The notes under the pieces: generated by a model
The model's input: only the letters and a program-made list of their open reading frames with translations
What the model was told of the DNA's origin: nothing
Databases searched by the model: none
NCBI GenBank assembly: GCA_024280375.1
Contig: JAJRQF010000089.1
Location: 1-64,000, forward strand
Direction: 5' to 3'
Length of the DNA stretch: 64,000 nucleotides
Source of the DNA: Alphaproteobacteria bacterium
Lineage (GTDB): Bacteria; Pseudomonadota; Alphaproteobacteria; Rhizobiales; Rhizobiaceae
In this document: in pieces, positions 13,259 through 59,070 of the stretch
Numbering within the stretch: the first letter of the stretch is position 1
Layout of the letters: every line of letters starts with the position of its first letter
Made by a program: the position numbers and the translations under genes

Positions 13259-13367
13259 CGCTCACGGCAATTCTTCGCTTCGCTCAGGCCTAAAGTATAT
13301 CGCGTTCATTGGCGCTATTTTGATGACTCAAGTTTTGCGCTTCGCATAGCTCAACGTGCAACTTGAG
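13259..13367 (+). repeat. Dispersed palindromic repeat, copy A
   Basis: Shares blocks with 35031-35114: a near-identical CGCTCACGGC-ATTC start, the core TTGCGCTTCGC-TAG, and CTCAACGTGCAACTTGAG. CTCAAGT (13327-13333) and ACTTGAG (13361-13367) can pair into a hairpin. Both copies lie directly behind plus-strand genes, so a role in 3-prime mRNA ends is possible. Confidence 0.6.
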
Positions 13368-34991: not shown

Positions 34992-35030
34992 AGCGAATCA
35001 TCCATAAATGGAATCGCTCCAGATTACATT

Positions 35031-35114
35031 CGCTCACGGCCATTCGGGGCTTTTCTAATGGCTCAAGTATTGCGCTTCGCCTAGATCAGGTCCGGGCTCA
35101 ACGTGCAACTTGAG
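35031..35114 (+). repeat. Dispersed palindromic repeat, copy B
   Basis: Second copy of the element at 13259-13367, with the shared core TTGCGCTTCGC-TAG and the same pairing ends CTCAAGT (35062-35068) and ACTTGAG (35108-35114). It carries a short insertion before CTCAACGTGC and a deletion near the start relative to copy A. Confidence 0.6.
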
Positions 35115-35285
35115 CTGCGCCCCGGCCTACGCGGGTGCGGTGCTGGCACCGGTCGGTTACGCCCTCAAATTGATTTCATCAATTTGCACATCGGGCTCCA
35201 ATCGTGGCCAGCCTGCCTCCATGTAAACATGTAAGAGTCTAGGAAATTACCAAGTCAAGAAATTCATGCCGATTGGGATGACAAT

Positions 35286-45613: not shown

Positions 45614-45689
45614 CGATGCAAATGCATCGCTCCCGCGAAGGCTGGGGCGCAGCCCCAAATTGCTGTGAGCGAAAGAATATTTGAGCAAT

Positions 45690-45704
45690 TCCGTCAAAGA
45701 CGGA
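45690..45704 (-). terminator. Hairpin after metF
   Basis: TCCGTC-AAA-GACGGA forms a perfect 6-bp stem seven bases after the minus-strand metF stop. There is no T tract, so a role in termination is uncertain. Confidence 0.35.
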
Positions 45705-45710
45705 CACGCT

Positions 45711-46649
45711 CTAAGCTGCCTTGGCGTTATTATTGTCTGCGCTTACCGGTTCGCCATTGTCGCCACCTGCGCGCACGCCCAGCATATGGCAAATCGCATA
45801 AACTAGATCGGCCCGGTTCATTGTATAGAAATGAAAGTCGGAAAAACCGCGATCAACCAGATCGAGCACCTGTTCTGCACCAACGGCGGCCGCTACCAGC
45901 TCTTCTGTACCGGGTTCATTTTCAAGGCCCTCAAATCGCTGTTCCAGCCATGTGGGAATATGAGTGCCGCATTTAGCAGCAAAAGCTGACAGGCTTTTGA
46001 AATTATGGATCGGTGCAATGCCCGGCACAATTGGTATATAAATTCCAGCCTTGCGCACCCGCTCCACATAGGCCTCAAACACGTCATTATCAAAGCAAAA
46101 CTGGGTGATAGCCCGGGTTGCGCCATTGTCGACCTTGCGTTTCAGCATATCCATGTCGGTGGCAAAATCCGGGCTTTCCGGGTGCTTTTCCGGATAGGCC
46201 GCAACGGTGATTTCAAAATCGGCAAAAGCCTTCATTCCGGCCACAAGCTCGGCGGCATTTTGATAGCCATCCGGATTTGGCTTGTAATGCGTACCAACCC
46301 CGCCCGTCGGGTCGCCGCGCAATGCAACAAAATGGCGAACTCCGGCATCCCAGTATTCGCGAATAACCTCGTCCACCTCTTCGCGGCTTGCATCGACGCA
46401 GGTTAAATGGGCTGCGGGCGAGATATCTGTTTCACGCGCAATATAGGATACCGTATCGTGGGTGCGCTTGCGGGTAGACCCGCCTGCCCCGTAAGTAACG
46501 GATACAAATGATGGATTAAGCGGTGCCAGCCGTTCGATAGAGTTCCACAGGGTTTTTTCCATCTTCTCGTTTTTCGGCGGGAAAAACTCAAATGAAACAT
46601 TGATATCGACATCGCGCATGGCACGGCGTGAAAGACTGGAAACACTCAT
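45711..46649 (-). CDS. metF: Methylenetetrahydrofolate reductase
   Basis: A 312-residue FAD enzyme that makes 5-methyl-THF for methionine synthesis. SFEFFPPKNEKMEKTLW and VSVTYGAGGSTRKRT are the N-terminal signatures; HFVALRGDPTGG and the FDFHFYTMNR-like SDFHFYTMNRADL at the C-terminus are typical. The start overlaps the stop of the ArsR-methyltransferase gene by four bases (ATGA), so the two form one coupled operon. It probably depends on the same upstream operator. Confidence 0.96.
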   Translation of the reverse strand: MSVSSLSRRAMRDVDINVSFEFFPPKNEKMEKTLWNSIERLAPLNPSFVSVTYGAGGSTRKRTHDTVSYIARETDISPAAHLTCVDASREEVDEVIREYWDAGVRHFVALRGDPTGGVGTHYKPNPDGYQNAAELVAGMKAFADFEITVAAYPEKHPESPDFATDMDMLKRKVDNGATRAITQFCFDNDVFEAYVERVRKAGIYIPIVPGIAPIHNFKSLSAFAAKCGTHIPTWLEQRFEGLENEPGTEELVAAAVGAEQVLDLVDRGFSDFHFYTMNRADLVYAICHMLGVRAGGDNGEPVSADNNNAKAA

Positions 46650-47674
46650 ACAACCAACTCCTGGTTATTTTTGGCGGTATTCTCCGCCATTAAAATTCTT
46701 TGATCCCTGGCAAGCCAAAGGGTAACGGTTAAATTATTCTGATCACTAATTTGAGGTGCCACATCGCGCACTTCAAGGATTTCAAGATCGGCAAGCTCCA
46801 GCCATTCCTTCATTTGATCATGGGAAAAACCAAGGCGCAGGTGCGCATGTTGCTCCCGCAAAAACTCAAGACCATGGGTGGCAAAATCGACAATTAGCAT
46901 AACACCTGAAGGTGCCAGCGCGCGGGCCGCCTCTTTGATCGCAAGTGCTGGATCATCAAGATAATGCAATACCTGATGAATGCTGACAAAATCATATGAG
47001 TTGCGCAGTGTTGGCAGCTGATAAATATCGCCGTTGCGAACCTGCGCATTGCCAATACCGGCATTTTCCAGATTAACCCGCGCATAGGAAAGCATATCGT
47101 GGCTGCCATCCAGCCCGATGGCGCGCTGGCAAATTGGCGCAAATATTTCAAGCACCCGGCCGGTGCCGGTTCCAAGGTCAAGCATCTGGCCAAATTGGCG
47201 ATCGCCGATCATCTCAAGCATGGCGGATTCCACCCGCTTTTCAGACGCATGCAGGGTTCGCAAACTGTCCCAGTCGGAGGCATTCTTGTCAAAATAAAGG
47301 GCGGCTTTTTCAGCCCGTTTGCGCTTTACGCCGTCCAGCCGTTCCGCATCGCGGGCGATCAGCGGATCATCAATATCAATGTGATCGATCATAAAGCGAT
47401 TAAAGGCCGAAGAAACGCCCTGATCTGAACTGCGGAAATAGGCCCAGGCGCCTTCCTGATAGCGCTCGGCCAAACCGGCCTCGACCAGCAGGCGCAAATG
47501 CCTGGAAATGCGTGGCTGCGATTGGCCTAGAATTTCAGTGAGATCACTCACCGTTAAATCCGATTTGCACAAAAGCGCAATCAAACGCAGTCTTGTCTGC
47601 TCTCCGGCGGCGCGCAAAAAGGCAACGCTTTCATCGAGCGACAGGTTTTGCATATTGTTGACTTGCTTTAACAT
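46646..47674 (-). CDS. ArsR-type regulator fused to a SAM methyltransferase-like domain (SahR-like)
   Basis: A 342-residue protein from ATG 47674 with GAAGG upstream. The first 90 residues are an ArsR winged helix (LSDLTEILGQSQPRISRHL-type motif). The rest is a class I methyltransferase fold with MLDLGTGTGRVLEIFA (about 163-178) for SAM/SAH binding. Known SahR regulators have this architecture and repress methyl-cycle genes until S-adenosylhomocysteine binds. Coupling to metF supports that role. Whether the domain still transfers methyl groups is unknown. Overlapping palindromes in its promoter are candidate operators. Confidence 0.87.
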   Translation of the reverse strand: MLKQVNNMQNLSLDESVAFLRAAGEQTRLRLIALLCKSDLTVSDLTEILGQSQPRISRHLRLLVEAGLAERYQEGAWAYFRSSDQGVSSAFNRFMIDHIDIDDPLIARDAERLDGVKRKRAEKAALYFDKNASDWDSLRTLHASEKRVESAMLEMIGDRQFGQMLDLGTGTGRVLEIFAPICQRAIGLDGSHDMLSYARVNLENAGIGNAQVRNGDIYQLPTLRNSYDFVSIHQVLHYLDDPALAIKEAARALAPSGVMLIVDFATHGLEFLREQHAHLRLGFSHDQMKEWLELADLEILEVRDVAPQISDQNNLTVTLWLARDQRILMAENTAKNNQELVV

Positions 47675-47690
47675 TGGCACCTTCGAAATG

Positions 47691-52160: not shown

Positions 52161-53999
52161 CTACTTGCTTGCCAAAACGCGCTGGGCAAATTTCTCGCGG
52201 AGTGACTTTATTTGCGCTAACGCCGCATTGACCTTTAGTTGCACCATATCCGCGCCGATTTTTGCGCTGGCCTTACCCGCATTGCCGTCAAAGCCCGCAT
52301 CCTTGCCCTTAGGCAGTTGCCAATTGCGGAATTTCACCATTTCAGGCGCAATAAAAAGCATCTCGGATGTATCGCGAATGCCCGCATGGCCGCCGATATC
52401 CTGCTTCGAATATCCCTGTTTCAACAGATGGTCGAACTGTCCATTGGCCGCATAATAATCGGTAATATTGGCGACTTCCACGCCTTCAGCACGCCAGATT
52501 GCTGATAATTGTTTTGCCACTTTGTTTTGCGCCGGTTGGTTGCCACCGCTATCACCAAGGAAGTAAATATGTTTGAAGCCGTGTTGTTTCATGCTGGCGG
52601 CTGCTGCAATCAACACCCCTTCAAATACCGGATCAGGCACGGAGATGGTGCCGGGCCAGGGCATGTGAATGGTGGGCTTTGGTGAAATTTCGCCCTCCGG
52701 CACATAGTCAATAACCGGGGCAATCAACGCATTGCCAAGGCTCCGGGCTATCATTTGGCTGGTTTTGGTCACCACCATATGGTGTTTTCCAAGTGGCACG
52801 AACGGGCCATTTTGTTCAGTTCCGGCGGTTGGAATAATAATCGTGTCATAACCGTTATCGAGTGCCGCCTGCACCTCAAACCAGTTCATATTTAGCAGTG
52901 CCACATGTTCCAGATTGAACCCCGGTTTGGTGCCCTTGTAATTTTGATAAAACCACGAGTAACCAAACCCGATCATTGCAACCGAAGCCACAATGATGCC
53001 AATCCGCGGGGCACTATTTAACGCCGGCTTGATCTGTTTCCATGACCATGAAAATGGCAATAAATACATCTGAGTGACCGAGCGAAATGGATTGGGCTGC
53101 GCATCATTGATGCCAAATCTGAGTTTCTCAAAACCTTTTGGCACATAAAGCGTATTCAGCAATCCATCCCAGAAAGCAAAGATCAACCCCATATTCTTGT
53201 CATAATGTTTTGGGTCGCGGCTGTGATGAATCTGGTGCTGGGCGGGTGAAATCAATATCTTGCTCAGCCATTGGGGATAGCTCAACCAGATATGAGAATG
53301 GCGTAGATTGTAGCCGCCGATATAGAACAGGAACACGACAATATTGATGCCCAGAATACTGACCTGCTGCGGCTCTTCACCGGTTAAATAAAACAACACG
53401 CCAATGGCGGCACCGGTTACCAGCGAAACGGTCAGGCTCATCAGGATCAGATCTATCGGATGCAGGCGAAACAGCGTCATCGGGGACAGCTGGTCGGCTG
53501 AATGGTGTACCTGATGGAAATTCCACAGAATTGGTATCCGGTGCTGCAGATAATGAATTGTAAAGACGCACAGATCCATGATCAGCACGGATATGATGGT
53601 GAAGATCGCCAAATGGGTGAAAGATGTCACCAAAGGCTGCTGGTTTTCGCCAAAGATGGATACAACGCCGGTAAAGGCAAAATTGGAAAATTCATGCACA
53701 GTAAACAGGAATTGCAGAATGATGCCGTAAAAAAGCACCGCATTGACGAAGAAATAAATCACATCCTGTTTGAAGGTTTCGCCCTTATATATCTTACTGG
53801 AAAACATATATTTGAAAAACCAGAGCAACGAACGCTGCTCTTTCGGGCCATATTCCTCGTGATCATCGCGGGCCAGCATGTAGGTTAGCACCGCAAGCAC
53901 CAGCGCGCTCAACAAATAAAGCACGTAAATGCGCTCGGTCGGCAAAAACGGGCCGATCATCTTGTTAAATGCGTTGAGTTTTAAATCTTCGACAAACAT
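52161..53999 (-). CDS. Fusion of a sterol desaturase-type membrane hydroxylase and a creatininase-like domain
   Basis: One intact frame of 612 residues from ATG 53999 (GGCGGAAACC upstream). Residues about 20-320 form a fatty-acid hydroxylase/sterol desaturase domain with several membrane segments and histidine boxes HYLQH, HQVHH and HQIHH for a di-iron site. A membrane segment near 350-370 links to a creatininase-like domain (about 385-600), recognised by PTAGTEQNGPFVPLGKHH, FLGDSGGNQ and GGHAGIRDTSEM. Compared with creatininase several metal ligands differ (EQN for EQH, KHH for the usual TD, DSGGN for NGHxxN), which I believe marks a separate subfamily. The substrate is unknown; the pairing suggests a hydroxylation step coupled to amide or lactam hydrolysis. 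Confidence 0.85.
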   Translation of the reverse strand: MFVEDLKLNAFNKMIGPFLPTERIYVLYLLSALVLAVLTYMLARDDHEEYGPKEQRSLLWFFKYMFSSKIYKGETFKQDVIYFFVNAVLFYGIILQFLFTVHEFSNFAFTGVVSIFGENQQPLVTSFTHLAIFTIISVLIMDLCVFTIHYLQHRIPILWNFHQVHHSADQLSPMTLFRLHPIDLILMSLTVSLVTGAAIGVLFYLTGEEPQQVSILGINIVVFLFYIGGYNLRHSHIWLSYPQWLSKILISPAQHQIHHSRDPKHYDKNMGLIFAFWDGLLNTLYVPKGFEKLRFGINDAQPNPFRSVTQMYLLPFSWSWKQIKPALNSAPRIGIIVASVAMIGFGYSWFYQNYKGTKPGFNLEHVALLNMNWFEVQAALDNGYDTIIIPTAGTEQNGPFVPLGKHHMVVTKTSQMIARSLGNALIAPVIDYVPEGEISPKPTIHMPWPGTISVPDPVFEGVLIAAAASMKQHGFKHIYFLGDSGGNQPAQNKVAKQLSAIWRAEGVEVANITDYYAANGQFDHLLKQGYSKQDIGGHAGIRDTSEMLFIAPEMVKFRNWQLPKGKDAGFDGNAGKASAKIGADMVQLKVNAALAQIKSLREKFAQRVLASK

Positions 54000-54716
54000 G
54001 GTTTCCGCCTTGCGCAATTTTAGTTGCAGGCGGTGTACCACAATGGGTTTAAGGTTGGTTTAACGGGGAGATTTGAGTTGGTATGACAACGGAGGGGAAT
54101 GTTAAATCAGAGAATAATCGAGCAATTCGAGCACCTGTGATTTGGATTGACACCACTCACGCGACGTCATCTTCGGCCTCGAGCCGAGGACCCATACCGT
54201 TCACTAACAAGACCTTAACAGATGTATTTGATGAGAGATTTCGGAATGGATCCTCGTGTCAAGCACGAGGATGACAGAGATTGGGGTGTATTTTGCTAAA
54301 CCAACCTTCACTCCATTGCTTTTCATAAGAATGGAAGAGATGGTAAGTTCTTATCAGGCACCTTACCTCTCGGTCGTCATCCCCGTGAAGACGGGGATCC
54401 ACGGGTGATTCGGCAAATTCAGAGGATTTTATTTCGAAAATTTAGCTCATTAGCCCGTTTGCAGCCGATATTTGACAATGAACAAACCGTTAGTCACCTG
54501 GATCCCCGCCCGCCCCTTCGACAAGCTCTGGAGGGAAGACGGAAAATTGACGTACATTTTTTCACCCATACAGCTGGCTATTCGCGGAAAGAGATTGACC
54601 AGATTCTATTTCTATTTAAGATTTCATATGATGCTAAGCGCGCTTTGTAGGAGCAAACAACATGAACCTCATTCTTGAGGAAATTTTGGGCAGATCTAAA
54701 TTCAAGCGAGGAAGCA
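54000..54716. other. Gene-free repeat region
   Basis: A 717-base stretch with no credible gene. It holds four palindromic elements of the GGATCC/GATGAC type between 54165 and 54545 and unremarkable AT-rich sequence around them. Short frames crossing it are translations of the repeats. Confidence 0.6.
54165..54545. repeat. Cluster of four REP-like palindromes
   Basis: Copies at 54165-54194 (CGTCATCTTCGGCC variant), 54248-54275 (GGATCCTCGTGTCAAGCACG variant), 54375-54407 (CGTCATCCCCGTGAAGACGG type) and a truncated one from 54495 (CACCTGGATCCCCGCC). They differ in the inner stem but keep the GATCC and GTCATCC ends, so they are related, independently mutated members of one family. Confidence 0.65.
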
Positions 54717-55511
54717 ATGGCTTCAATTAATCAATTTGGAGATTTTGGGGCAACGACCAATAGTGTGCGAGCAAATATTCCAAAAGGCCGTTCGTCAAGT
54801 GTGGGAGAGATGAGTGTCGTCGTTGGGCCTGTTGATGTTTTTGGTGCGGGGGCAAGAATTGGGGCAATTGGAAAATCACTTGACCCATCTTTAAGAAGCG
54901 TAACAGACGCAAAATCGTCAAGAGGAGCTGCTGGATTCAATGTCTATTTGTCAAGAACAATGACTAAGGCGAAAAAATGCTTCCATAATTTGCTGGTGAC
55001 AGTAATTTTATTGATTAGCTTGGCGCTATTTTTCATGGTTTCGGAGGCCAACCCGTTTCAGAGATTTACCATTAGGTGTGATGCGGCATCAATTGGAAGT
55101 GGTTTTCAAAAAAGTGTAATTAGAGTAATTAAAACTTGCATCAATAGGAACTATAAAACATCATTTTATAATATGAGATGGCTCGAAGACCGGTATTTAT
55201 CCAGAATATTTGGTAATATTGAACCAGAGTTACGTGAATTAATAATAATACTAAACGGAGTAGATAGAAGATTTGTAGTAAAATCGCTAAGGGTCAATAG
55301 TGAATCCTATAATTTCCACATGAAAATTGTCAATGAGAACGTAAATAGACTGAGCCAATTGCTCAACCAGTTTGGTGTTGAAAAATTATCAGACGACTGC
55401 ATGAAATTGAAGTCTGTTGATCGTTGTTATGCACAAGCCCGGAAAAAAATTGCGCTTCCTACATTAAGAAAAATAAGGTTTAGAATCTTTTTTCTCAGGG
55501 AGTTAAAATGA
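54717..55511 (+). CDS. AT-rich protein of unknown function with one membrane segment
   Basis: A 265-residue product from ATG 54717, which follows a good GAGGAAG ribosome site. Residues 1-80 are polar and Ser/Gly-rich, a membrane segment lies at about 90-110 (LLVTVILLISLALFFMV), and the C-terminal 150 residues are basic and helical with four cysteines. An alternative start at ATG 54960 would place the membrane segment at the N-terminus as an anchor. No family is recognised. The 3-prime half is much richer in AT than the surrounding genes, suggesting foreign origin. Tandem repeats follow directly. Confidence 0.55.
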   Translation: MASINQFGDFGATTNSVRANIPKGRSSSVGEMSVVVGPVDVFGAGARIGAIGKSLDPSLRSVTDAKSSRGAAGFNVYLSRTMTKAKKCFHNLLVTVILLISLALFFMVSEANPFQRFTIRCDAASIGSGFQKSVIRVIKTCINRNYKTSFYNMRWLEDRYLSRIFGNIEPELRELIIILNGVDRRFVVKSLRVNSESYNFHMKIVNENVNRLSQLLNQFGVEKLSDDCMKLKSVDRCYAQARKKIALPTLRKIRFRIFFLRELK

Positions 55512-55519
55512 ACCGGTCA

Positions 55520-55569
55520 CTTACACGGTTTATCGGATACTACCCTTACACGGTTTATCGGATACTACC
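55520..55569. repeat. Exact 25-bp tandem duplication
   Basis: Two identical 25-base units, 55520-55544 and 55545-55569, each containing TTACACGGTTTATCGGATAC. They begin eight bases after the stop of the AT-rich gene. Confidence 0.9.
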
Positions 55570-55850
55570 ACAAAGACGTGCATTCAAACGAAAACAAACC
55601 AAACAGGCAAGAAAGAGCAGTTTCGCACATTGAATTTTGTCAATCGTCACCCATTTATTATCCGATACTAACCTCTGTATTAAAGGACATCTGTGCTCAT
55701 AATTGACTATGTCATCGACCATTTGCTTGATATGTCAAAAACCAAAATTGGTGCATTATTTGCCTAGATTTTATTTTTCTGCATTTGCGGGACAATGATT
55801 TATATCAATCCCTAGTCGACAAAAAATTCGTACTGAAATTTCCTTATCAA

Positions 55851-55910
55851 CCCCCTCCCACCTGCTGCGCAGGCACCCTCCCCCTAACAGGTGGAGGGTT
55901 AGCGGGCGGC
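55851..55910. repeat. GC-rich intergenic palindromic repeat
   Basis: A CCTGC-TGC-GCAGG hairpin (55861-55873) lies within an outer imperfect pairing of CCTCCCACCTG and CAGGTGGAGGG. Repeats of this kind are common between alphaproteobacterial genes. It could act as a terminator for the minus-strand gene that ends at 55962. Confidence 0.5.
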
Positions 55911-55961
55911 GAGTTTCGAATGTAAGTTTCATTCGATTTTGCATCGCATTAATTACGAACT

Positions 55962-56771
55962 CTACCCTTTTTTCTCATAGGCAAGGATTTCCACAAGACC
56001 GGTATTGCCGCCGCTGCTGGTGGCCGCATCAATGCGCAGGGTCTTCGTGGTGGCGTTCAGCTCAAAGCGATAGGATTTGCTGGCATCCGGCAAGGTGAAA
56101 GGCCCATGGACCTTGCCCGCATCATCGGTTGCGGTAAAGGTGGAGATTTGCGCAGTGCCATCGCTCATGGTGCGGGTCCAGATGTCTACGGCACCAATAT
56201 TGGCTTTTTTGCCGAAATCCAGCACCAGAAATGCGCCCGACCCATCGCCCGATGATGACCAAGCGGTGGACGGGTCGCCATCAAGCGCGCTGTTTGCACC
56301 CCAAGACTGATCGTTTTCAGCACCGCCATAATTGCTACTAACCATCATAACGCTGGCTGAAAGCGCCATCAGGCCCGCCGGGCCTTTTGCCTTGGCAGTA
56401 GTGGTGAATTCACGAATTTTGCCCGCATATAATTTACCGTTGGCGGCAATGCCCTGCACGCGGAAATAGTACTTTGTTTCAGGCTCCAATCCGCCCAAAA
56501 CCGGATTGTGATCAATTGTGGTGAGCGAGCCCATATTAGGATCATTGGCGATTTTGCCGAACTCTTTGGTAGTGCCATAAACAACCGTGCAAGCAAGCGG
56601 TACACTGGAGAGAAAGGTAAGGCCTGCGCTCTTTGCCCCCACATCCACCAGTTTTGGTGGTGTGCCATTGGTGGCATCGGAGAGCGGTAGCACCTGCAAT
56701 GATTGGGCGTTGGCCGGTATGGCGCTCATAGAGGTGCCAAGAATTAGAACCATGGGTAGAATATAACGCAT
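55962..56771 (-). CDS. Secreted protein with fibronectin III-like and discoidin-like domains
   Basis: A 269-residue protein starting at ATG 56771 with GGAG seven bases upstream (a GTG four codons earlier is weaker). The signal peptide covers about 1-22 (cut after IPANA). Residues about 30-125 look like an FN3/purple acid phosphatase N-domain (GLEPETKYYFRVQG). Residues about 140-265 resemble an F5/8-type C (discoidin) carbohydrate-binding domain (SALDGDPSTAWSSSGDG, LVLDFGKKANIGAVDIWTR). Probably extracellular or periplasmic binding; no catalytic domain is present. It is divergent from zntA. Confidence 0.8.
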   Translation of the reverse strand: MRYILPMVLILGTSMSAIPANAQSLQVLPLSDATNGTPPKLVDVGAKSAGLTFLSSVPLACTVVYGTTKEFGKIANDPNMGSLTTIDHNPVLGGLEPETKYYFRVQGIAANGKLYAGKIREFTTTAKAKGPAGLMALSASVMMVSSNYGGAENDQSWGANSALDGDPSTAWSSSGDGSGAFLVLDFGKKANIGAVDIWTRTMSDGTAQISTFTATDDAGKVHGPFTLPDASKSYRFELNATTKTLRIDAATSSGGNTGLVEILAYEKKG

Positions 56772-56911
56772 CAGGTGCTCCACTTAGAAAGATATCAATG
56801 TGATTATCTGATTGCCTGAAAATTGCCCGGCGCGTAATCCACAATATTTCAATTCTCTGTGAGGCATGTTTGTCGATGTCACACCATTCACCAGATTTTT
56901 GAATTTTTCGC

Positions 56912-56942
56912 TTGAAGCTCACGTTGCTAGAGGTCCTATAAG
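56912..56942 (+). promoter_or_regulatory. MerR-type promoter of the metal ATPase gene
   Basis: A TTGAAG -35 box (56912-56917) and TATAAG -10 box (56937-56942) are separated by 19 bases, the over-long spacing typical of MerR-family metal-responsive promoters. The spacer contains an imperfect dyad (AGCTC ... GAGGT). It lies 35 bases before the zntA ATG. The regulator gene is not in this window. Confidence 0.6.
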
Positions 56943-56976
56943 GGTTGAAATTACCAAAATCACGTCAGGAAATTTC

Positions 56977-59070
56977 ATGCCAAAAACCAACACACTGCTT
57001 ATTGACGGAATGGACTGCCCAAGCTGCACCAGCAAAATTGAAGGTGCCGTTTGCAAATTACCCGGCGTGGAAAATGTCAAACTCAACTACACCACCCAAA
57101 AGTTGAAATTTGACATGCCCAATGCAGAGCATGATGCGGCCATTGTCACCCGCACCATCGAAAAGCTTGGCTATAAGGTGAAAAGCGGCAAAACCCCAAA
57201 AGTTGAGCAGGCCTGGTGGCAGACGGGCAAAGGTCGGCTGGTTATTTCCGCTGGCTTATTGCTGGCATTTGCCACCGTGCTTTCCTATTGGCAGCCTCAA
57301 TATGCATCCTATGTGTTTGCTGGTGCCGGGCTTGCAGCGCTCTACCCTTTGGCCCGCAAAGCCTGGTTGAGCGCGCTTTCCGGCCAGCCTTTCACCATTG
57401 AAACACTTGTGACAATCGCCGTAATAGGCGCGATATTTATCGGCGAACAGGCGGAAGCTGCGGTGGTCGTGTTCCTGTTTCTCATTGGTGAATTATTGGA
57501 AATGATTGCAGCCGCCAAGGCGCGGCGCTCGGTGCAGGCTTTGGCTGATCTGGTGCCCAAATCTGCCCTGCTGGTGATTGAAGACGGGGTGCGCGAGGTG
57601 GATGCGGCAAGCCTTGCTATTGGCGATGTCATTGAAATCCGCCCCGGCGACCGCATTGCTGCGGATGGCGTTATTATTGAGGGACAAAGTTCGATTGATG
57701 AGGCGGCGATCACGGGCGAGTCCATGCCTGTTGGTAAAAGTATTGGCGACAGTGTATTTGCCGGATCTATCAATGCCGATGGGCTGATCCGATTGAAAAT
57801 CGAAAAAACCTCTGAAAACAATATGATCTCCCGTATTCTTCAATTGGTGGAAGAAGCGGAGGCCAGCAAAGCCCCCACTGCCCGCTTTATCGACGATTTC
57901 AGTCGCTATTATACGCCGGGCGTCATTGTCGTATCAGCCCTGATCGCCTTTATCCCGCCGCTGTTTTTCGACGCGGACATGATGACCTGGATTTATAAGG
58001 GCCTCGCCATACTGCTGATCGGTTGCCCCTGCGCGCTGGTGCTTTCAACCCCTGCGGCGATTACCTCCGGTATCTCGGCGGGTGCAAAACACGGTCTGTT
58101 AATGAAGGGCGGCGCAGTGCTGGAAGCAATTGGCAAGGTCACGCAAATTGCATTCGATAAAACCGGTACGCTGACTGAGGGCACACCCAAGGTCACGGAT
58201 ATTCATGTAATTTCAGGCACAGAAGATGAATTATTGGCCCTAGCAGGCTCGGTTGAGGCAGGCTCATCGCACCCGCTGGCTGTGGCCATTGTGGAAAAGG
58301 CCAATGAACGAGGTGTTGCGCTCAGCAAGGCAGAAGGGTTGGAGGCACTGAACGGCAGGGGTGTCAAAGCTCTCGTTGGTGGCAAAGAAGTAACCATCGC
58401 CTCGCCGCGCTATGGTCGTGAAATTGCAACGCTATCGCCTGAGGCAAGCGATCTTATTCAAAAGTTGGAAGAGGATGGAAAAACCGTCGCGGTTACCATT
58501 GTTGATGGCAAGATAATTGGGCTGTTTGCGCTTCGAGACGAGCTTCGTGATGACGCCAAAACTGCCATGGACGAGCTCAACGACATGGGCATTAAGGCAA
58601 TCATGCTGACCGGCGACAATGCGCGCACCGGGGCGGCCATTGCCAGCCAGTTGGGCATTGATGTTAAGGCAGAGCTTATGCCACAGGAGAAACTTGAAGA
58701 GATCAAGCAATTGCGCAAGATCGGTGATACGGCGATGGTTGGTGACGGTATCAATGATGCACCGGCACTGGCGCTGGCCAATGTGGGTATTGCTATGGGT
58801 GGTGGCACCGATGTGGCGCTGGAAACGGCTGATGCGGCATTGCTGCATGAACGGGTGCGCGATGTCCCGGCGCTGATTTCGCTGTCAAAGGCAACCATGC
58901 GCAATATTCATCAAAACATTTCAATCGCGCTGGGGCTAAAGGTGGTATTTCTGCTGACCACCCTGTTTGGCATCACAACTTTGTGGATGGCCATTTTGGC
59001 TGATACGGGTGCCACCGTGCTGGTGACCATCAATGCACTGCGCCTGCTCGGCTATAAGTTCAAGAGATAG
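56977..59070 (+). CDS. zntA: Heavy-metal P-type ATPase, ZntA-like
   Basis: A 697-residue efflux pump starting at ATG 56977 with AGGAAA upstream; the frame open to 56866 overlaps the promoter. An N-terminal HMA domain carries GMDCPSC (C14, C17). TGES is in ITGESMPVGKS, the membrane metal site is C350-P-C352 in GCPCALVLSTPAAI, the phosphorylated aspartate is D394 in DKTGTLTEG, and MVGDGINDAPALA is the hinge. CPC with this overall sequence favours Zn2+, Cd2+ or Pb2+ export rather than Cu+. The MerR-type promoter fits metal induction. Confidence 0.94.
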   Translation: MPKTNTLLIDGMDCPSCTSKIEGAVCKLPGVENVKLNYTTQKLKFDMPNAEHDAAIVTRTIEKLGYKVKSGKTPKVEQAWWQTGKGRLVISAGLLLAFATVLSYWQPQYASYVFAGAGLAALYPLARKAWLSALSGQPFTIETLVTIAVIGAIFIGEQAEAAVVVFLFLIGELLEMIAAAKARRSVQALADLVPKSALLVIEDGVREVDAASLAIGDVIEIRPGDRIAADGVIIEGQSSIDEAAITGESMPVGKSIGDSVFAGSINADGLIRLKIEKTSENNMISRILQLVEEAEASKAPTARFIDDFSRYYTPGVIVVSALIAFIPPLFFDADMMTWIYKGLAILLIGCPCALVLSTPAAITSGISAGAKHGLLMKGGAVLEAIGKVTQIAFDKTGTLTEGTPKVTDIHVISGTEDELLALAGSVEAGSSHPLAVAIVEKANERGVALSKAEGLEALNGRGVKALVGGKEVTIASPRYGREIATLSPEASDLIQKLEEDGKTVAVTIVDGKIIGLFALRDELRDDAKTAMDELNDMGIKAIMLTGDNARTGAAIASQLGIDVKAELMPQEKLEEIKQLRKIGDTAMVGDGINDAPALALANVGIAMGGGTDVALETADAALLHERVRDVPALISLSKATMRNIHQNISIALGLKVVFLLTTLFGITTLWMAILADTGATVLVTINALRLLGYKFKR

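What the first reader, a model, noticed from the sequence alone, without database searches (positions are those of the whole stretch)
52161..53999. Sterol desaturase-creatininase fusion
One frame joins a di-iron membrane hydroxylase with all histidine boxes to a creatininase-like domain with altered metal ligands. I know of no pathway using such a fusion. It may convert an unusual lipid amide, betaine lipid or hopanoid/carotenoid derivative.
Basis: partly seen in the sequence, partly recalled or inferred. Interest (0 to 1): 0.65.

Follow-up and report, generated by a model that had tools for sequence, protein, structure and literature searches.

The report
Fused lipid hydroxylase and amidohydrolase-like enzyme
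One bacterial gene joins a membrane-bound iron hydroxylase to a relative of creatininase that probably faces the periplasm and whose usual metal-binding residues have been swapped; the same two parts occur as fused or neighbouring genes in other bacteria, so they probably act together, but on what is not yet known.

Summary
One 612-aa frame (window 52161-53999, minus strand) carries FA_hydroxylase (PF04116) with three histidine boxes and Creatininase (PF02633) with altered metal ligands. It is not a read-through artefact: six further genomes carry the fusion, six carry both halves as adjacent same-strand genes (four overlapping by 4 bases), and three pair the creatininase-like gene with another hydroxylase subfamily. 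Both halves are under strong purifying selection. The altered ligands are a subfamily trait (41 relatives): Glu34 kept and Asp45 to His in all, His36 always lost, Gly119 to Asp in 40. His120 is Ser in all 13 rows fused or adjacent to this hydroxylase type. Stand-alone relatives start with a hydrophobic export signal or anchor (33 of 34), and the fusion has a transmembrane segment there, so the second domain should face the periplasm and the di-iron site the cytosol. I read it as a two-sided envelope-lipid tailoring enzyme. The substrate is unknown: hopanoids and betaine lipids are unlikely, aminolipids possible but untested, metal or ligand uptake a live rival. A sister branch is paired with a YncE-like beta-propeller. 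No paper on the fusion was found in the library searched. Structure prediction failed, so no metal site was seen.

The parts
52161..53999 (-). Fusion gene, 612 aa, FA_hydroxylase + TM linker + creatininase-like domain (GTG-extended frame to 54041)
53151..53597 (-). FA_hydroxylase (PF04116) domain, residues 135-283
53541..53555 (-). Histidine box 1, HYLQH, residues 149-153
53502..53516 (-). Histidine box 2, HQVHH, residues 162-166
53223..53237 (-). Histidine box 3, HQIHH, residues 255-259
52947..53003 (-). Sixth hydrophobic segment, residues 333-351, between the domains; takes the place of the signal peptide/anchor of stand-alone relatives
   Evidence: hydropathy; N-termini of relatives
52284..52892 (-). 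Creatininase (PF02633) domain, residues 370-572
52779..52817 (-). Motif EQNGPFVPLGKHH, residues 395-407: Glu34 kept, His36 to Asn, Asp45 to His
52536..52553 (-). Motif DSGGNQ, residues 483-488: Gly119 to Asp, His120 to Ser, Glu122 to Gly
52365..52388 (-). Motif HAGIRDTS, residues 538-545: His178 kept, Glu183 to Asp

Best explanation
It is a conserved two-part membrane enzyme. Shown: the two halves form a real, selected pair that occurs fused, as adjacent genes, or apart in one genome; the creatininase-like half belongs to a subfamily with a systematically changed ligand set. Inferred from sequence: five hydrophobic segments hold a di-iron hydroxylase whose histidine boxes face the cytosol, a sixth takes the chain across the membrane, and the creatininase-like domain stands in the periplasm. 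Inferred, less sure: the hydroxylase puts a hydroxyl group on a membrane lipid; the periplasmic domain then opens or removes an amide-type (or ester) bond on the same lipid or on a group attached at that position, using E395, H406 and D483 (with H538 as acid/base) in place of the usual binuclear site. Fusion would couple the two steps or fix their ratio.
For: Fused in 7 genomes: window, G1032 (=L004), G1062, G043, G083, G018, G008. Adjacent same-strand pairs in G048, G303, G889, G858, G856, G761; another hydroxylase subfamily adjacent in G274, G294, G065. So 16 of 41 subfamily rows are fused to or next to a hydroxylase. Co-occurrence: 26 of 39 genomes with the creatininase-like half also have the hydroxylase half, against 73 of 1055 without it; without the fused genomes 19 of 32, Fisher p about 1e-13. 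Within the subfamily 21 of 25 genomes of the hydroxylase-linked part have this hydroxylase type against 4 of 14 of the propeller-linked clade (p 0.0009). Selection against L004: dN 0.013/dS 0.274 (hydroxylase), 0.0087/0.423 (creatininase-like). Ligand changes conserved in 41 rows. A strongly hydrophobic segment precedes the domain in 33 of 34 stand-alone rows, and the fusion has one there too. Nearest named hydroxylase family is OlsE, an ornithine-lipid hydroxylase. Some relatives of the hydroxylase half sit beside acyltransferase genes, which fits lipid tailoring.
Against: No substrate, product or metal has been tested. The structure model failed (mean pLDDT 34.6), so the new metal site is only an alignment inference. 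The two active sites would lie on opposite faces of the membrane, so the lipid must flip. The N-terminal 23 residues carry 3 Lys/Arg but would face the periplasm in this topology, and a further weak hydrophobic stretch (452-470) lies inside the second domain. Some relatives of the hydroxylase half sit in TonB/imelysin or ABC-transport clusters, and the window copy has a heavy-metal P-type ATPase gene two genes away: not lipid tailoring. OlsE score is far below cut-off (42.9 of 475 bits). Both co-occurrence tests ignore shared ancestry; thresholds were set against the window protein; and 4 of the 26 co-occurring genomes (G087, G186, G264, G537) have a creatininase-like gene of the propeller-linked clade, not of the hydroxylase-linked part.
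Confidence: 0.4

Rival explanations
1. The creatininase-like domain is no longer an enzyme: it lost the binuclear metal site and binds a ligand or lipid in the periplasm, sensing or handing over substrate for the hydroxylase.
For: Four of five canonical ligands are changed in the window protein; His120 is Ser in 13 of 13 rows fused or adjacent to this hydroxylase type. Another branch of the same hydroxylase family is fused to an extracellular solute-binding domain in three loci (L080; L082 and L085), i.e. a binding module in the same position.
Against: E395, H406 and H538 positions are invariant in 41 of 41 rows, D483 in 40; the domain has lower dN/dS than the hydroxylase half; new potential ligands (His, Asp) appear together, which is more like re-wiring than loss.
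Confidence: 0.25
2. The pair serves metal or small-ligand uptake or handling: the hydroxylase and the periplasmic domain process a small amide compound (for example a metal-binding ligand) rather than a structural lipid.
For: A clade of the hydroxylase tree (99/98) contains the four TonB receptor/imelysin/DUF4856-linked genes (L074, L075, L077, L079), the three solute-binding-protein fusions with an ABC permease next door, and also the hydroxylase of the fused G008 and split G048 pairs. In the window and L004 a heavy-metal P-type ATPase gene (56866-59070; HMA and E1-E2 ATPase domains) lies one gene beyond the F5/8-type-C gene, and on plasmid pBN2 a heavy-metal P-type ATPase adjoins a propeller-type creatininase-like gene.
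Against: The main fused clade holding the window gene lies outside that clade of the hydroxylase tree. The P-type ATPase of the window had a match in L004 only among the 61 loci compared.
Confidence: 0.2
3. It acts on a hopanoid, carotenoid or betaine lipid.
For: The FA_hydroxylase superfamily includes carotenoid and sterol hydroxylases (recalled).
Against: Hopanoid cyclase in 7 of 16 pair genomes and not found in the window's own; BtaA-type family in 6 of 16 and not found in its own. The only SQS_PSY match of the window's genome lies about 0.8 kb from another FA_hydroxylase match (contig C44), which may serve carotenoids instead.
Confidence: 0.08
4. Read-through or assembly artefact of unrelated neighbours.
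For: Nothing beyond the unusual combination; two of the other fused loci are on short contigs (G008 3.7 kb, G018 9.8 kb).
Against: Seven genomes, including two with 51-53% identity on longer contigs (G043, 216 kb; G083, 53 kb), selection on both halves, and adjacent split pairs.
Confidence: 0.02

Closest known systems
OlsE, ornithine lipid hydroxylase (NCBIfam NF052566; FA_hydroxylase superfamily PF04116)
   Same: Membrane di-iron hydroxylase type with histidine boxes; nearest named NCBIfam model of the first half
   Different: 42.9 bits against a cut-off of 475; different subfamily, with an extra TM segment and a second domain
Creatininase / creatinine amidohydrolase (TIGR04448; PDB 1j2t, 1v7z, 1q3k)
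   Same: Same family by sequence profile (PDB E about 1e-18); Glu34 and His178 kept
   Different: Four of five metal ligands changed; 54.4 bits against cut-off 235; preceded by a TM segment, whereas creatininase is a soluble cytosolic enzyme (recalled)
MftE, mycofactocin peptidase (TIGR03964)
   Same: Best-scoring NCBIfam creatininase-type model for this domain (59 bits)
   Different: Below cut-off 172; membrane-anchored and paired with a hydroxylase
Exported creatininase-like genes paired with a YncE-like beta-propeller
   Same: Same EQ[N/S]G...GKH...GD[H/S]G motif set; hydrophobic N-terminus
   Different: Next gene is a beta-propeller in 14 of 14 rows of that clade (PF21783 scanned in L065 and L069, the rest by clustering); His120 kept
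FA_hydroxylase fused to a solute-binding protein (L080, L082, L085)
   Same: Related hydroxylase half followed by a hydrophobic segment and a second domain
   Different: Second domain is SBP_bac with an ABC permease next door

Membership tests
FA_hydroxylase superfamily (PF04116) | Pfam score over curated cut-off | tested here: met
   80.2 bits against 31
FA_hydroxylase superfamily (PF04116) | Histidine boxes HX3H, HX2HH, HX2HH | tested here: met
   H149, H162, H255 boxes, invariant in the alignment of the window and 9 relatives
OlsE ornithine lipid hydroxylase | NCBIfam NF052566 score over cut-off | tested here: not met
   42.9 bits against 475
OlsE ornithine lipid hydroxylase | Hydroxylates ornithine lipid headgroup | not testable with these tools
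   OlsB-like family present in 15 of 16 pair genomes but also 134 of 150 genomes of the order
Creatininase family (PF02633) | Pfam score over curated cut-off | tested here: met
   110.4 bits against 31.3
Creatininase, creatinine amidohydrolase (TIGR04448) | NCBIfam equivalog score over cut-off | tested here: not met
   54.4 bits against 235
Creatininase, creatinine amidohydrolase (TIGR04448) | Binuclear ligands Glu34, His36, Asp45, His120, Glu122 (recalled list) | tested here: not met
   E395 kept; N397, H406, S484, G486 in the other places
MftE mycofactocin peptidase | NCBIfam TIGR03964 score over cut-off | tested here: not met
   59 bits against 172
MftE mycofactocin peptidase | Lies with mftA/B/C genes | not tested
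   The genome was not searched for mft genes
IolN 3-dehydro-scyllo-inosose hydrolase | NCBIfam NF041098 score over cut-off | tested here: not met
   46.8 bits against 245

The most novel reading that the evidence does not exclude
A new kind of trans-bilayer lipid-tailoring enzyme: a cytosol-facing di-iron hydroxylase physically coupled to a periplasmic hydrolase of the creatininase fold with a new, re-wired metal site and new chemistry, assembled more than once from different hydroxylase lineages by turning a signal peptide into a transmembrane linker.
Probability: 0.3. Interest if true: 0.68.

Novelty: new variant of a known kind. Interest (0 to 1): 0.5.

Why it matters
It marks a recurring protein partnership in Alphaproteobacteria for which no paper was found in the searches named, and gives a testable route to the function of two poorly known groups at once: a branch of bacterial 'sterol desaturase' proteins and an exported creatininase-like subfamily whose active site has been systematically changed. 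If the lipid reading is right, a new envelope lipid and a new metal-site chemistry in an old fold would follow.

Tried and rejected
It failed (mean pLDDT 34.6, pTM 0.22), so no fold search was run and nothing is claimed from it.

Two viral-contig scans for relatives found none.

Hopanoid and betaine-lipid substrates were tested by co-occurrence and set aside. The ornithine-lipid test was uninformative, as was SQS_PSY.

Neighbour genes of the window copy (aminotransferase and homoserine-dehydrogenase-like ORF on one side, an F5/8-type-C protein and a heavy-metal P-type ATPase on the other) gave no conserved lead. Compared with the called genes of 61 loci, the immediate neighbours matched L004, apart from a 27% match of the aminotransferase in L052. 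Some genes next to the other fused copies that I scanned are ATP synthase subunits and a methyltransferase (L046), an aminotransferase (L047), a pyridine nucleotide oxidoreductase (L048), a DUF2161 protein and a sugar kinase (L108); not every neighbour was scanned. In L004 the F5/8-type-C gene is 90 bp upstream of the fusion gene; it had no match in the other loci compared.

Paper searches for creatininase with sterol desaturase, fatty acid hydroxylase or beta-propeller, for creatininase family with periplasmic, and for imelysin with sterol desaturase gave no paper on the fusion (search listings only). Searches gave nothing on the ligand change. These cover open PMC papers only.

Two scripts failed and were corrected. 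The home-made gene caller missed or shortened some of the target genes (L047, L049, L050, L066, L119 among them), so open frames were used for the two domains.

It also said the G858 pair overlaps (there is a gap of 4 bases to the likely start) and that no transport gene is near the window copy (one search shows a P-type ATPase).

Full report
Check of the observation. The frame 52161-53999 on the minus strand is one open frame of 612 aa. Pfam finds FA_hydroxylase at 135-283 and Creatininase at 370-572, both well over cut-off. The three histidine boxes are intact. The window lies in a 3.9 Mb genome of 133 contigs with four FA_hydroxylase and four creatininase matches. A close relative (97%) sits on a contig titled Rhizobiaceae bacterium MAG (L004); the same coordinates appear as G1032, same genus, and I count it once.

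The fusion is real and recurrent. Searches with the whole protein over 297 genomes of the order, 398 of the phylum, 385 of the class and 101 of the family (overlapping draws) gave full-length fused relatives in G1032 (97%), G043 (53%), G083 (51%), G018 (48%) and G1062 (48%). G008 is fused with a more distant hydroxylase half (33%). Split halves are adjacent and on the same strand in G303, G889, G856 and G761, each with a 4-base overlap of the genes as called; in G858, where the likely start lies 4 bases after the stop of the first gene; and in G048, where one stop codon parts two open frames in the same frame at a contig end. In G274 (4-base overlap), G294 and G065 (divergent) the creatininase-like gene adjoins a different hydroxylase subfamily (27-29% identity, 101-110 bits to OlsE).

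I fetched every genome with a creatininase-half match of at least 140 bits in those listings (39 genomes) plus G555 (136.7 bits), which gave 41 rows because G302 has two. Of these, 7 are fused, 6 adjoin the same hydroxylase type and 3 adjoin the other type: 16 of 41. The two neighbours of a gene would include one of some five hydroxylases among about 4000 genes roughly 0.25% of the time (my estimate, not a call), so this is not chance.

Co-occurrence. Counting genomes with the creatininase-like half (at least 140 bits) and this hydroxylase half (at least 100 bits), 26 of 39 with the former have the latter, against 73 of 1055 without it; with the fused genomes removed it is 19 of 32, Fisher p about 1e-13. 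The total of 1094 assumes that every handle up to G1093 was searched. Split by clade, the hydroxylase type is present in 21 of 25 genomes of the hydroxylase-linked part of the subfamily and in 4 of 14 of the propeller-linked clade (G087, G186, G264, G537; p 0.0009); G302, which falls in neither, has it too. Both tests ignore shared ancestry, only 3 to 7 or so candidates per genome were scored, and thresholds are set against the window protein, so I lean on adjacency more than on these p-values.

Trees. In the creatininase-domain tree (44 rows) six fused rows, including the window, form one clade (100/97). They lie within a clade (96/90) that also holds G008 (fused) and the split G048, G303 and G889. 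The 14 propeller-linked rows form a separate clade (94/95). In the hydroxylase tree (40 rows) the same six fused rows form a clade (100/100). The hydroxylase halves of G008 and G048, however, fall in another clade (99/98) with solute-binding-protein fusions and TonB/imelysin-linked genes, and starred branches force at least two changes of the fused label there (in the creatininase tree they force only one). So either the fusion arose twice or the hydroxylase half was replaced once. With the other hydroxylase type next to the gene in three genomes, the creatininase-like subfamily has been paired with at least three hydroxylase lineages, the strongest sign of a functional link.

Altered ligands are a subfamily trait. 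In the profile alignment to creatininase chains, and across 41 rows: Glu34 is Glu in 41 of 41; His36 is never His (Asn 26, Ser 11, Gly 3, Lys 1); Asp45 is His in 41 of 41; Gly119 is Asp in 40 of 41; His178 is His in 41 of 41; Glu183 is Asp in 37 of 41. His120 is Ser in all 13 rows fused or adjacent to this hydroxylase type and in 7 of 7 near rows whose genomes have it elsewhere (L051-L054, L113-L115). It is His in the three rows beside the other hydroxylase type and in the 14 propeller-linked rows, including the four whose genomes also have this hydroxylase; of the other four rows (L060, L061, two in L068) one has His, two Ser, one Asn. Three canonical creatininases of the same genome, aligned as outgroup, keep His36, Asp45 and His120. 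The change is conserved rather than decay. A replacement site of E395, H406 and D483 beside H538 is my inference; no structure supports it, because the prediction failed.

Selection. Against L004 (NG86) dN/dS is 0.013/0.274 for the hydroxylase half and 0.0087/0.423 for the creatininase-like half. Both are strongly constrained, the second more so.

Topology. Hydropathy gives segments near 24-42, 80-98, 130-148, 176-202, 212-230 and 333-351, and a weak one at 452-470 inside the second domain. Loops 43-79 and 231-326 are rich in Lys/Arg (7 and 11), while loops 99-129 and 203-211 have none. By the positive-inside rule the histidine boxes face the cytosol and residues after 351 the periplasm; the N-terminus, with 3 Lys/Arg, would then lie outside. 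Stand-alone relatives have a hydrophobic stretch just before the domain (15-residue mean over 1.6) in 33 of 34 rows, L114 being the exception; by eye they look like signal peptides or N-terminal anchors (no signal-peptide predictor was at hand). The sixth segment of the fusion takes that place. The fusions of a related hydroxylase to a solute-binding domain also have such a segment. This is sequence inference only.

What it may act on. The nearest named hydroxylase family is OlsE at 42.9 bits, far below its cut-off of 475. OlsE hydroxylates the ornithine-lipid headgroup (two passages of PMC11631085 seen, one of them the title of its reference 46). Some relatives of the hydroxylase half lie next to MBOAT or Acyl_transf_3 genes or a GNAT-annotated gene, which suits lipid tailoring. 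Others lie in TonB receptor/imelysin/DUF4856 clusters or are fused to a solute-binding domain, which points to uptake; several more have neighbours that suggest neither. The window copy has a heavy-metal P-type ATPase two genes away, matched in L004 only. Across 16 pair-carrying genomes: hopanoid cyclase 7, BtaA-type 6, OlsB-like 15 (134 of 150 in the order), SQS_PSY 16. These argue against hopanoids and betaine lipids and leave aminolipids open.

Verdict. The fusion is genuine and the altered site is a subfamily property. Whether the second domain hydrolyses anything is unknown. I rate it a new variant built from known families, with no paper found in the searches named (open PMC only). Domain-architecture databases were not available, so the fusion may already be listed there.

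Noticed in passing
L080 7345-9357, L082 7034-9043, L085 2980-4986: A related hydroxylase fused to an extracellular solute-binding domain, with an ABC permease gene on one side and a DUF4856 gene on the other (Pfam run on L080, the other two by gene clustering); a second, unrelated fusion of the same hydroxylase type.
   Followed up: partly
L074, L075, L077, L079: Relatives of the hydroxylase half lie with a TonB receptor, an imelysin (Peptidase_M75) and a DUF4856 protein (Pfam run on L075; the others by gene clustering), which looks like an iron-uptake cluster.
   Followed up: partly
L058, L062-L067, L069, L070, L122-L126, L128: A sister clade of creatininase-like genes has a YncE-like beta-propeller gene next door in 14 of 14 rows (PF21783 scanned in L065 and L069); on plasmid pBN2 (L128) the pair is annotated creatininase family protein and YncE family protein.
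   Followed up: partly
L072 9121-10545, L073 9488-10606, L127 9121-10293, L131 7873-9012: Hydroxylase relatives next to membrane acyltransferase or GNAT genes, three of the four overlapping by 1-4 bases.
   Followed up: no
window 54067-55963: A stretch of about 1.9 kb (41% GC against 49% for the window) between the F5/8-type-C gene and the fusion gene is absent from the near relative L004; its ORF 54675-55511 has no Pfam match.
   Followed up: partly
window 56866-59070; L128 3106-5511: A heavy-metal P-type ATPase lies near the window's fusion gene, and one also adjoins a propeller-type creatininase-like gene on plasmid pBN2; may be coincidence.
   Followed up: partly
window 13309-13367, 35010-35127, 45651-45714: Short dispersed sequences matching L004 7092-7216, probably an intergenic repeat family.
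   Followed up: no
window 46646-47680: ArsR-type DNA-binding domain joined to a SAM methyltransferase in one ORF, next to a methylenetetrahydrofolate reductase ORF at 45711-46649.
   Followed up: no
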